NCBI RefSeq assembly: GCF_000186365.1 | Contig: NC_014961.1 | Coordinates: 868,001 to 932,000, forward strand | DNA from: Desulfurococcus mucosus DSM 2162 | Lineage (GTDB): Archaea > Thermoproteota > Thermoprotei_A > Sulfolobales > Desulfurococcaceae | Length of the DNA: 64,000 bases | Direction: 5' to 3' | Shown here: positions 45,482 to 48,340 of the stretch, piece by piece | Numbering within the stretch: the stretch's first letter is position 1 | Layout: each line of letters begins with the position of its first letter | Position numbers and translations under genes: made by a program | Notes under the pieces: generated by a model | What the model was told of the DNA's origin: nothing | Database searches by the model: none | Seen by the model: only the letters and a program-made list of their open reading frames with translations

Positions 45482-46471
45482 ATGGTTTTAACCATGAGGA
45501 GCATAGTGTTTATCCTGGTTCTCCTGGTACTGTTATTTACCCTCGCTTACCCGTCTCCTGCATACGGGCTGCCAGCGGGAATCACAAGCGTTGAGTACAT
45601 AGTCTTCTACGATCCCACCGAAGGAGTAGGTACACTCAGAGTAACTGTTTCAATGACCCCGGATGCCAGTCAGCAGGCATTCAGCATCCCAGACCTACCT
45701 GTGAAGGTTTTCAGTGATGCATCCCTGGAGCTGTTGAACTACACGGGTTACCCGGCAACAGGCTACCTGCTAGTCGAGTACAATGATACCACTGGCTACG
45801 CCTCGATAACAGCTGTCAACGTATCCTCAGTAACCATGTATTTCTCTGTCAGCAACTTAACCGAGGAAGTCTCAGTGGGCTCCTACACTGCGACACTCGA
45901 CTTAACTGAGTACAGTGGTAGCGGTATAAGTCCCTCAGTGGAGATGTACCTGCTAGGAGTATACAACGCCACAGTGGACTCCTACCCCAGGGCCGCTGAC
46001 TACAGTATCCAAGTAGCCAATAACATGACGATCATCAAAGCGTCTTCACCAGCAGTGTACTTCATAGTGCTCACGGTACCGATCACCACTCCTGGAGTAC
46101 CCCCGGCCCCAGCCCAACCCATCAACTTGCTTATAGTCGCCCTGGTAATTGCAGCCGTGTCAGCTGTCGCAATAATACTCTACCTGATACTGAGAAGGCC
46201 TAAGAGCATAGGGGGCGTGGAGCCCGCGGATGTGCTCAACGACCCGGTTTCAAGAAGCATTATACGGATCCTTGGGGAGGCTGGCGGGGAAGGCTTAACG
46301 CAGGCTGAAATAACCAATAGAACCGGGGCACCCAAGTCAAGCGTCAGCAGGAGGATCAAGAGGCTTGAGGAAGAAGGATATATCGCTGTCGACCGAACCG
46401 GTAAATACAACTACCTGAAGCTAACGGATAAGGGTGTGGAGGCATACAGGAAGATAGCGGGGAAGAAGTAG
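45482..46471 (+). CDS. membrane-anchored winged-helix regulator with extracytoplasmic domain
   Basis: N-terminal signal/anchor (SIVFILVLLVLLFTLAYPSPAYG, residues about 7-29), a beta-rich outer domain of about 180 residues with many N-x-S/T sites, a single transmembrane helix INLLIVALVIAAVSAVAIILYLIL (about 214-237), then a cytoplasmic winged helix DPVSRSIIRILGEAGGEGLTQAEITNRTGAPKSSVSRRIKRLEEEGYIAVDR with wing and end. This is a one-piece transmembrane DNA-binding protein, with sensing outside and output inside. What it senses and controls is unknown. ATG at 45494 could also be the start. Confidence 0.78.
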   Translation: MVLTMRSIVFILVLLVLLFTLAYPSPAYGLPAGITSVEYIVFYDPTEGVGTLRVTVSMTPDASQQAFSIPDLPVKVFSDASLELLNYTGYPATGYLLVEYNDTTGYASITAVNVSSVTMYFSVSNLTEEVSVGSYTATLDLTEYSGSGISPSVEMYLLGVYNATVDSYPRAADYSIQVANNMTIIKASSPAVYFIVLTVPITTPGVPPAPAQPINLLIVALVIAAVSAVAIILYLILRRPKSIGGVEPADVLNDPVSRSIIRILGEAGGEGLTQAEITNRTGAPKSSVSRRIKRLEEEGYIAVDRTGKYNYLKLTDKGVEAYRKIAGKK

Positions 46472-46494: not shown

Positions 46495-46998
46495 ATGGGC
46501 TTTTTCCATGTGAGGGAATCAGGCTGGATAGATGAGACAGTGGTCTTCGACTACTATGACCCAGACCACTACTATGCGAGCCTCACGCGGGATGAACTCC
46601 TCGAGGAGAAAGAGGCCCTTGCCAGAAACATGCAGTTCTACCTGGATCTAGAGGATGTGAGGCTTAACGGTAAACCCTGTTTCCCAAGGGTTTTAGATGT
46701 GGATGTAGGCTTCAGAGGGAGCATGGATCACCCCTATGTAGTCTTCACAATAGTTTTCAAGGGCGAGCTGGTTGAAGGCGTAAACGTCTTCGAGGATAGA
46801 TATGAAGAGGAGGTGGCTGAATACGGTTACAGGGTTTACTGGATTCTCCCCCCTACCGGTAGATTCACCGAGGTCGATGTAGGAGTCCCCTACATGTTGT
46901 CAGCCAACAACAGGATCCTCGTGTTCACCGTGGATGCAGGTGTAAGAGTAAGAGGATACGAGAGAATAGTTTTCGAAATAGAGAAAAGGATTAATTAG
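46495..46998 (+). CDS. hypothetical protein, 167 aa
   Basis: Unrecognised soluble protein; acidic, rich in Tyr and Val (WIDETVVFDYYDPDHYYASLTRDELLEEKEALARNMQFYLDLEDVRLNG, then a beta-rich C-half). It follows the membrane regulator by 23 bases on the same strand, which suggests joint transcription. ATG start with no strong ribosome binding site. The 214-base gap after it contains two sRNA candidates. Confidence 0.6.
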   Translation: MGFFHVRESGWIDETVVFDYYDPDHYYASLTRDELLEEKEALARNMQFYLDLEDVRLNGKPCFPRVLDVDVGFRGSMDHPYVVFTIVFKGELVEGVNVFEDRYEEEVAEYGYRVYWILPPTGRFTEVDVGVPYMLSANNRILVFTVDAGVRVRGYERIVFEIEKRIN

Positions 46999-47046
46999 CT
47001 ACCCTCCACATAGCTATATCATGCGGGAATGATGTATGGGGACCTC

Positions 47047-47094
47047 CATTGATGGAGGTCGCCTGACAAGTGATGTGGGGCCAAAGCGCTGAGC
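47047..47094 (+). ncRNA. C/D-box sRNA candidate 1
   Basis: Boxes in order: C-like TTGATGG (47049-47055), D' CTGA (47063-47066), C' GTGATGT (47070-47076), D CTGA (47089-47092). The D'-to-C' gap is 3 nt and the C'-to-D guide is 12 nt, both typical of archaeal 2'-O-methylation guides; the D' guide is only 7 nt. The C box is imperfect and lies in the hairpin GACCTCCA-TTGA-TGGAGGTC. The rRNA or tRNA target is not identified. Confidence 0.5.
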
Positions 47095-47151
47095 CCGCTT
47101 ACTCGTCGTGTAGGAGGCTTACCCCCAGGGATCGCTGTTAAGGCGTGATCA

Positions 47152-47204
47152 AGGTGATGAATACGTCATCGCATGACCGGTGATTTGAACCGACCCTACT
47201 GAGG
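47152..47204 (+). ncRNA. C/D-box sRNA candidate 2
   Basis: C box GTGATGA (47154-47160), D' ATGA (47173-47176, one mismatch to CTGA), C' GTGATTT (47180-47186), D CTGA (47199-47202). Spacings are 12-3-12, the textbook symmetric arrangement. The RNA ends directly at the GAGGTG ribosome-binding site of priL, so it would be part of, or abut, the priL 5' end. Guides are ATACGTCATCGC (D') and GAACCGACCCTA (D); I could not assign targets. Confidence 0.62.
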
Positions 47205-47212
47205 TGTTTGAA

Positions 47213-48340
47213 ATGGGGTACCTGAACCTTGTAAAGTACCCTTTTGTCGCGAGGCCCAGTGACCTTGGGCTACCTGATGAGGCAGGTTTCTCCATAGTGA
47301 TAGACTCCCTGAGCGATAGGCTTCGCGAGGTTTTCCCAATAGTCTTCAGGAGCATAGTTCATGCAGAGATGAGGATTGATCCACGTGTCTTCATAGATGA
47401 TGCTGAAAGCGTTGCCTGCTACAGGCTTTTACTCGCCGTGGCGAAGGCCATCGGCGACAGGAGACTGGTTAACAGGGTGGCACTGGCATACGCTAAAACC
47501 GCTGGGAAAAGCCTCATGGAGGAAGAGGACTCTGTATTGATCTCGCTGTCGAGCAGGATAGGCCTTCACCTGGAGTATCTTGAGAACCCGCCAACCCTAC
47601 CCGTCTTCGGGGAGTCCACGGGGAGGAAGCGGGTTAAAGGCTTCTTCACCCCGCTCAACTACTCTCTCCCATGGGCTGAGTATGCTGGGATAGTCTCCGG
47701 GAGGCTGTCCCAGGATCCATCGTACAGTCTCGAAAACAATGTGGTGGAAGGTGGAAAAGTATACATGGATAAGAGGACCGTGGTAAGGGTGCTCGAGGAA
47801 GCCATCACCGGCTACATCGTGTCTGATGCATCCGTTGGCATAGGTACACTTGGAATAGACCTAGGCTTCTTCCTGGAGGAAGCGAGAAAAATACTCTCGG
47901 AGGCAGGGTGGTTTAAAACCCTCCGGGTTGAACAAGGGTATGGTAAGGCTGGAGAAGTGGCCCCGGAGAAGTTTCCTCCATGCATCCTGAGAATAATTGG
48001 GATCATAGAGTCAGGGGGAAACCCGAGCCATGAGGAGAGATTCAACCTAGCTGCATTCCTAGCCAACATAGGGCTCGACGTCGACTCCATTCTAGAATAC
48101 TTTAGAAAAACCCCGGACTTCAATGAGAAGATAGCTAGGTATCAAATAGAGCACATATCTGGTGTAAGGGGTAGCGGTAAGAAGTACATGCCCTACAGTT
48201 GCGAGAAGATGAAATCCATGGGGATATGCCCGGTGGAAGGGAAGTGTAAGGGGGGAAGGAACCCCTTGGCGGTATATAGGTATAACCTGAGGTCTGCCCG
48301 CCCCGGATCAATCCATGGTACCTCCCAACAAGCCAGCTGA
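47213..48340 (+). CDS. priL: DNA primase large subunit
   Basis: Regulatory [4Fe-4S] subunit of archaeal/eukaryotic-type primase, which supports primer initiation with the small subunit PriS. The C-terminal domain carries four Cys: EKFPPCILRIIG (about residue 261), YMPYSCEKMKSMGICPVEGKCKGGRNPLAVY. The N-terminal helical region contains IDDAESVACYRLLLAVAKAIG. ATG 47213 is chosen since GAGGTG lies six bases before; the GTG at 47204 is that site itself. 375 residues. PriS is not adjacent. The last 206 bases are overlapped by an antisense gene. Confidence 0.9.
   Translation: MGYLNLVKYPFVARPSDLGLPDEAGFSIVIDSLSDRLREVFPIVFRSIVHAEMRIDPRVFIDDAESVACYRLLLAVAKAIGDRRLVNRVALAYAKTAGKSLMEEEDSVLISLSSRIGLHLEYLENPPTLPVFGESTGRKRVKGFFTPLNYSLPWAEYAGIVSGRLSQDPSYSLENNVVEGGKVYMDKRTVVRVLEEAITGYIVSDASVGIGTLGIDLGFFLEEARKILSEAGWFKTLRVEQGYGKAGEVAPEKFPPCILRIIGIIESGGNPSHEERFNLAAFLANIGLDVDSILEYFRKTPDFNEKIARYQIEHISGVRGSGKKYMPYSCEKMKSMGICPVEGKCKGGRNPLAVYRYNLRSARPGSIHGTSQQAS

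What the first reader, a model, noticed from the sequence alone, without database searches (positions are those of the whole stretch)
47047..47204. Two tandem C/D-box sRNA genes in front of primase PriL
Candidate 2 has C, D', C' and D boxes at exact 12-3-12 spacing; candidate 1 has good D', C' and D boxes with 3- and 12-nt gaps. Candidate 2 ends right at the priL ribosome-binding site, so an sRNA and a replication gene may share one transcript, with sRNA processing setting the priL 5' end.
Basis: partly seen in the sequence, partly recalled or inferred. Interest (0 to 1): 0.6.

Follow-up and report, generated by a model that had tools for sequence, protein, structure and literature searches.

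The report
Paired RNA-methylation guides before a primase gene
Just in front of the gene for the large DNA-primase subunit, this heat-loving archaeon carries two small guide-RNA genes that probably direct methyl groups onto two transfer RNAs; the arrangement is kept throughout its family, and one guide RNA carries an extra, hairpin-masked stretch complementary to ribosomal RNA.

Summary
Both candidates are real C/D box sRNA genes. Neither architecture occurs in 200 shuffles of the window, and relatives keep the boxes and guides.

Candidate 1 is longer than reported: about 47022-47099, with the true C box at 47029-47035. The "C box" inside the reported start lies in a hairpin loop. Its D guide (GGGGCCAAAGCG) matches tRNA-Gln(UUG) with U34 in the methylation position; the match is a perfect 11 bp in five genomes of other families. 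Published mass spectrometry finds Um34 in Sulfolobus acidocaldarius tRNA-Gln(UUG). The C-to-D' half is unusual: a conserved GGGGACCUC sits beside the C box, is masked by a hairpin, and matches 23S rRNA. Three genomes of a sister family change guide and rRNA together.

Candidate 2 (47154-47202) has boxes and 12-3-12 spacing as reported. Its D' guide matches tRNA-Leu(UAG/CAG) with U44 in register. Its D guide best fits G26 of the same tRNA, weakly here.

Linkage to priL is family-wide for candidate 1 (36 of 39 genomes; the other three are contig-truncated). Here the candidate 2 D box overlaps the priL Shine-Dalgarno sequence. A shared transcript is likely; processing setting the priL 5' end is inference. 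All functions are predictions; no expression data exist here.

The parts
46990..46997 (+). TATA-like ATTAATTA, possible promoter of sRNA 1 / sRNA 2 / priL
   Evidence: Inference from position: many relatives have an A/T-rich box 27-38 nt before the C box; not mapped experimentally
47022..47099 (+). sRNA 1 (candidate 1, corrected boundaries); ends approximate
   Evidence: Conserved in 36 of 39 priL-bearing family genomes; model R1 matches 85 of 165 genomes of the class
47023..47027 (+). terminal stem, 5' arm GCGGG
47029..47035 (+). C box ATGATGT of sRNA 1
   Evidence: UGAUG invariant in alignment A1
47037..47046 (+). C-side antisense element TGGGGACCTC, 10-nt complement of 23S GAGGUCCCCA (L002 3659-3668)
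   Evidence: guide and 23S differ together in G048, G049, G050
47041..47060 (+). masking hairpin GACCTCCA-TTGA-TGGAGGTC
   Evidence: MFE and stem scan; hairpin arms covary in f2 genomes
47063..47066 (+). D' box CTGA of sRNA 1
   Evidence: invariant in A1
47070..47076 (+). C' box GTGATGT of sRNA 1
47077..47088 (+). D guide GGGGCCAAAGCG; predicted target tRNA-Gln(UUG) U34
47089..47092 (+). D box CTGA of sRNA 1
47094..47098 (+). terminal stem, 3' arm CCCGC
47154..47202 (+). sRNA 2 (candidate 2), C box to D box
   Evidence: model R2
47154..47160 (+). C box GTGATGA of sRNA 2
47161..47172 (+). D' guide ATACGTCATCGC; predicted target tRNA-Leu(UAG/CAG) U44
47173..47176 (+). D' box ATGA of sRNA 2
47180..47186 (+). 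C' box GTGATTT of sRNA 2 (degenerate)
47187..47198 (+). D guide GAACCGACCCTA; tentative target tRNA-Leu G26, rival 16S 1415
47199..47202 (+). D box CTGA of sRNA 2, overlaps the priL Shine-Dalgarno sequence
47201..47206 (+). GAGGTG, priL ribosome-binding site
   Evidence: six bases before ATG 47213; complementary to the 16S 3' end read
47213..48340 (+). priL, DNA primase large subunit
   Evidence: PF04104 E = 4.8e-30

Best explanation
Two box C/D guide RNA genes and priL probably form one transcription unit. sRNA 1 would assemble with L7Ae, Nop5 and fibrillarin; its D guide would direct 2'-O-methylation of wobble U34 in tRNA-Gln(UUG), pairing with precursor or spliced tRNA. Its C-to-D' half carries a conserved sequence that can pair with 23S rRNA near E. 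coli position 1985, normally masked by a hairpin whose 3' arm copies the rRNA target. Because this sequence lies next to the C box and not next to D', I infer an antisense or chaperone contact rather than an ordinary D'-guided methylation. sRNA 2 would modify the junction of tRNA-Leu(UAG/CAG): U44 by its D' guide and, less certainly, G26 by its D guide. Shown by sequence and comparison: the genes, their conservation, their position before priL, the complementarities, and the joint guide/23S change. Inferred: expression, sRNP assembly, the modifications, co-transcription with priL, and any competition between excision of sRNA 2 and priL translation.
For: Architecture absent from 200 shuffles. 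sRNA 1 upstream of priL in 36 of 39 family genomes, three cut at contig ends. D guide of sRNA 1 best fits tRNA-Gln(UUG), N+5 = U34 (34 of 2,000 shuffled guides as good); perfect 11 bp in intronless genes of five genomes of other families; Um34 measured in S. acidocaldarius tRNA-Gln(UUG) and linked there to a C/D guide (PMC7668247). Pattern scan: 61 contigs in 84,980 species, all Thermoproteota. C-side element: guide GGGGACCUC with 23S GAGGUCCCC in the family, GGGGCCCUC with GAGGGCCCC in G048, G049, G050. sRNA 2 D' guide: 10 bp to tRNA-Leu, U44 at N+5, conserved in 29 family genomes and beyond. D guide: tRNA-Leu G26 first in the family sum and in a separate other-family set.
Against: No expression or modification data for this organism. 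In this genome the sRNA 2 D guide is not significant (1,113 of 2,000 shuffles) and 16S 1411 scores slightly better; its own D' guide is weaker (223 of 2,000) than the common form (80 of 2,000). tRNA-Leu does not vary, so covariation could not be tested. The joint guide/23S change is one evolutionary event. 5S, SRP and RNase P RNAs were not tested as targets.
Confidence: 0.75

Rival explanations
1. The 23S complementarity is incidental and the C-to-D' half of sRNA 1 is conserved only as a structural hairpin; the sRNA is a single-function tRNA-Gln guide.
For: The element is out of register with D', so no methylation site follows; a 10-nt match somewhere in rRNA is not rare by itself; the hairpin arms also covary.
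Against: In genus g14 the hairpin partner decays while GGGGACCUC stays; guide and 23S change together in G048, G049 and G050; G109 keeps pairing through G-U.
Confidence: 0.3
2. The D guide of sRNA 2 targets 16S rRNA helix 44 (site 1415), or nothing, instead of tRNA-Leu G26.
For: 16S 1411 scores 111.6 against 112.2 for tRNA-Leu in the family sum and is the better site in this genome (8.0 against 7.4); good fits in G010, G027 and G028; the guide drifts between genera.
Against: By hand comparison with each genome's own helix 44 pairing is poor in G001, G002 and G034; in the separate other-family set tRNA-Leu G26 is first and 16S 1411 is not among the top eight.
Confidence: 0.4
3. sRNAs and priL are independent neighbours: the sRNAs have their own promoter and processing, and adjacency to priL is only inherited gene order.
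For: Outside the family sRNA 1 homologues are not next to priL; in G018 the tRNA-Gln guide sits at another locus; some genera have A/T-rich stretches between sRNA 1 and sRNA 2.
Against: Spacing is tight in many genera and all 24 priL-linked named contigs keep the same special D' half; no obvious separate priL promoter in this genome (inspection).
Confidence: 0.3
4. Chance box matches, no sRNA genes.
For: Box motifs are short.
Against: 0 of 200 shuffles; deep conservation.
Confidence: 0.02

Closest known systems
Archaeal box C/D sRNAs guiding tRNA wobble methylation: predicted S. acidocaldarius guide for tRNA-Gln(UUG) U34 (PMC7668247) and Pyrococcus position-34 guides (PMC7994747)
   Same: sRNA 1 D half: same target nucleotide, same N+5 geometry; Sulfolobaceae genomes carry the same D guide
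   Different: Different, enlarged C-to-D' half with a masked 23S complement; linked to priL only in this family
Dual-guide C/D sRNAs with both guides on nearby sites (rRNA in PMC7994747, PMC4644070)
   Same: sRNA 2 may place both guides on one RNA, at facing positions 26 and 44
   Different: Target is a tRNA; the review states that tRNA-targeting Pyrobaculum sRNAs use one guide only (PMC7994747)
C/D sRNA genes overlapping the 5' end of an ORF (about 7% of cases, PMC7994747)
   Same: sRNA 2 D box overlaps the priL ribosome-binding site
   Different: Tandem pair, family-wide conservation before one replication gene
Rfam sR14 (RF01145)
   Same: Best Rfam match to sRNA 1: 25.2 bits, E = 6e-5 for the 311 bases searched
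   Different: Below the gathering score of 38 bits; the guides differ, so it is not filed there

Membership tests
Archaeal box C/D sRNA (sRNA 1) | C, D', C', D boxes in order | tested here: met
Archaeal box C/D sRNA (sRNA 1) | 10-12 nt guide directly before D, target with N+5 rule | tested here: met
   tRNA-Gln(UUG) U34
Archaeal box C/D sRNA (sRNA 1) | 10-12 nt guide between C and D' | tested here: not met
   C-to-D' spacer is 27 nt here with an internal hairpin; conserved complement is beside the C box. This half is a variant; the box core and D half are typical
Archaeal box C/D sRNA (sRNA 2) | C, D', C', D boxes with 12-3-12 spacing | tested here: met
   C' and D' degenerate
Archaeal box C/D sRNA (sRNA 2) | Guides complementary to rRNA or tRNA with N+5 rule | tested here: inconclusive
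   D' guide to tRNA-Leu U44 supported by conservation; D guide weak in this genome
Archaeal box C/D sRNA (both) | Stable small RNA bound by L7Ae, Nop5, fibrillarin | not testable with these tools
   Needs small-RNA sequencing and pull-down
Rfam sR14 | Covariance-model score at or above 38 bits | tested here: not met
   25.2 bits
sRNA with 5' ORF overlap sharing a transcript | One transcript, priL 5' end set by sRNA processing | not testable with these tools
   Needs 5' RACE or TSS mapping

The most novel reading that the evidence does not exclude
sRNA 1 is a bifunctional C/D RNA: one half guides tRNA-Gln wobble methylation, while the other half is a self-masked antisense switch whose hairpin contains a copy of its own 23S target and opens only on nascent rRNA. 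The same transcript carries priL, with excision of sRNA 2 and translation of priL mutually exclusive, so that tRNA and rRNA maturation would be coupled to replication.
Probability: 0.15. Interest if true: 0.8.

Novelty: new variant of a known kind. Interest (0 to 1): 0.5.

Why it matters
It adds two conserved guide RNA families with specific, testable tRNA targets (tRNA-Gln U34; tRNA-Leu U44 and perhaps G26), and one has a half-molecule that does not follow the normal guide geometry. The family-wide linkage to a core replication gene gives a natural case for asking whether guide-RNA processing and expression of the gene behind it compete.

Tried and rejected
Rfam at gathering threshold finds only tRNAs in the window, and the relaxed match to sR14 is below threshold. 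An ordinary D' guide for sRNA 1 (GATGGAGGTCGC) was rejected: it is not conserved, though 23S 483 pairs with 9 bp. 23S 1877 as target of D guide 1 was rejected: three mismatches before N+5. tRNA-Pro(UGG) is a second-best target of D guide 1 (10 of 12 pairs, mismatch next to N+5) and is not excluded. A covariation test of sRNA 2 against tRNA-Leu failed because tRNA-Leu hardly varies. A D'-like NNGA in the hairpin loop would put GGGGACCUC in normal register in many genomes, but it is missing in genera g3, g5, g7, g11 and g16, and in tetraloop members the GA is explained by stem pairing; left open. The automatic consensus structure used for model R1 (4 pairs) is not the structure proposed here; R1 acts almost as a sequence profile. 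The three in-frame TGA reported for priL of G001 were not seen on translation. Lui et al. 2018 (Pyrobaculum) is not held.

Full report
Setting. The window lies in a single-contig genome of 1,314,639 bp. That length, and named relatives among homologous contigs (Thermosphaera, Staphylothermus, Thermogladius, Ignisphaera), point to the Desulfurococcaceae; from memory the length fits Desulfurococcus mucosus, which I did not verify. The gene behind the sRNAs is priL (PF04104, E = 4.8e-30). Its most likely start is ATG 47213 with GAGGTG six bases ahead.

Observation. A search for C-D'-C'-D architecture with canonical spacing finds one place in 64 kb on both strands, candidate 2. A looser form with a C-to-D' spacer up to 45 nt also finds one, candidate 1. 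Neither occurs in 200 dinucleotide-preserving shuffles. These patterns were written after seeing the candidates, so the comparison is somewhat favourable to them; conservation is the stronger evidence. Candidate 1 was mis-bounded: the block conserved in relatives runs from the C box at 47029 to the D box at 47092, flanked by a 5-bp terminal stem (47023-47027 with 47094-47098).

Conservation. sRNA 1 is found upstream of priL in 36 of the 39 family genomes with a priL match. The remaining three (G006, G012, G019) are cut at contig ends; in G012 sRNA 1 is on another contig and sRNA 2 starts the priL contig. sRNA 2 is recognisable in 29 genomes, a few degenerate (G031, G018, G014), and is missing in others such as genus g12, where priL follows sRNA 1 by about 33 nt. 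A covariance model of sRNA 1 matches 85 of 165 genomes of the class. A 22-nt pattern of its D half hits 61 contigs in 84,980 species, every one titled as a thermophilic archaeon of the Thermoproteota. In 24 of these, priL is 33-280 nt downstream, and all 24 carry the GGGGACCUC element or a one-base variant. 34 have no priL in the fetched DNA, and 3 had too little downstream DNA. So the D half is widespread and combines with different D' halves; the special D' half fixed before priL marks this family.

Target of sRNA 1, D half. Among 7,845 rRNA and tRNA sites of this genome, the D guide fits pre-tRNA-Gln(UUG) best, with U34 at N+5; 34 of 2,000 shuffled guides do as well. In this genome the tRNA has an intron, placed by me after position 37, and pairing uses either the first intron bases or, after splicing, the stem with one mismatch. 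In five genomes of other families with intronless genes (G170, G050, G163, G151, G042) the match is GCUUUGGCCCC, 11 perfect pairs. Mass spectrometry found Um34 in S. acidocaldarius tRNA-Gln(UUG), and the authors connect it with a predicted C/D guide (PMC7668247). In G018 the priL-linked copy has lost the guide and a second locus carries GGGGCCAAAGCG-CTGA. This target is therefore the best supported statement here, although not shown in this organism.

The other half of sRNA 1. GGGGACCUC follows the C box, then a self-complementary 3' arm, then D'. It matches 23S GAGGUCCCC (L002 3659-3667; with the preceding U, 10 pairs), near E. coli 1980-1990, in domain IV, where helices 68-71 are a methylation hotspot (PMC4644070). 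In f2 genomes (G048, G049, G050) the guide reads GGGGCCCUC and their 23S reads GAGGGCCCC; G109 keeps pairing through a G-U. G095 has GGGGCCCUC but its 23S was not found; another member of its family has GAGGGCCCC. In genus g14 the hairpin partner decays while the guide stays. I read this as pairing with 23S plus a hairpin that masks it. It is one evolutionary change, so support is moderate. The element is not in register with D', so a methylated nucleotide cannot be predicted; an antisense or chaperone role is inference.

Targets of sRNA 2. The D' guide in its common form pairs over 10 Watson-Crick bases with tRNA-Leu(UAG/CAG) from position 41 into the variable arm, with U44 at N+5 (80 of 2,000 shuffles as good); this genome's version has one G-U pair (223 of 2,000). 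The guide is kept in other families. The D guide drifts. Summed over the family, tRNA-Leu G26 is first (112.2) with 16S 1411 almost equal (111.6); 11 of 1,000 column shuffles reach that maximum. In a separate set of 13 homologues from other families tRNA-Leu G26 is again first (36 of 500 shuffles reach its score). For this genome alone the D guide is not significant (1,113 of 2,000). The site list counts near-identical tRNA genes, and homologues are related, so these frequencies are not probabilities. Positions 26 and 44 face each other, and G26 modification including m22Gm26 is known in thermophilic archaea (PMC7668247).

Link with priL. Many relatives show a TATA-like box 27-38 nt before the C box of sRNA 1, and in this genome the two sRNAs and priL are close, so a single transcript is likely. 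In this genome and in several relatives (G002, G029, G032, G034, G026-G028) the D box of sRNA 2 runs straight into the ribosome-binding site; excision would then damage it. A review reports that 5' overlaps occur in about 7% of C/D sRNA genes and lower downstream expression (PMC7994747). In other genera the sRNA ends farther away, so this is at most a lineage-specific effect.

Verdict. These are C/D sRNAs; sRNA 2 is a new member of the kind and sRNA 1 a variant with an unusual half. The functional claims rest on sequence comparison and need RNA data.

Noticed in passing
L342 (G018:C1:449343-449722): In G018 the priL-linked sRNA 1 has a changed D guide (GGGCCATAAT), while an unlinked locus carries the exact GGGGCCAAAGCG-CTGA D half: the guide appears to have moved.
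   Followed up: partly
L344-L404: Across the order the same tRNA-Gln D half is joined to many different, canonical D' halves (for example AGCAYGCTAAAY-CTGA in several Ignisphaera-like contigs), suggesting modular exchange of sRNA halves.
   Followed up: no
window 47049-47052 and equivalent loops in relatives: In many family genomes and in G048, G049, G050 and G095 the hairpin loop ends in NNGA exactly where a degenerate D' box would put GGGGACCUC in normal guide register; absent in several other genera.
   Followed up: partly
L340 (G000:C1:4264-4503): The other tRNA-Gln gene of this genome (anticodon CUG) is about 240 bp long with a long intron; its GGCUCUGGCCC pairs with the sRNA 1 D guide except at the N+5 nucleotide (C34).
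   Followed up: no
window 46495-46998: 167-aa ORF directly upstream of sRNA 1 has no Pfam match; its last codons overlap the TATA-like box.
   Followed up: no
window 45482-46471: 329-aa protein with a C-terminal winged-helix (MarR/IclR-like) domain and a hydrophobic stretch before it, perhaps a membrane-bound regulator.
   Followed up: no
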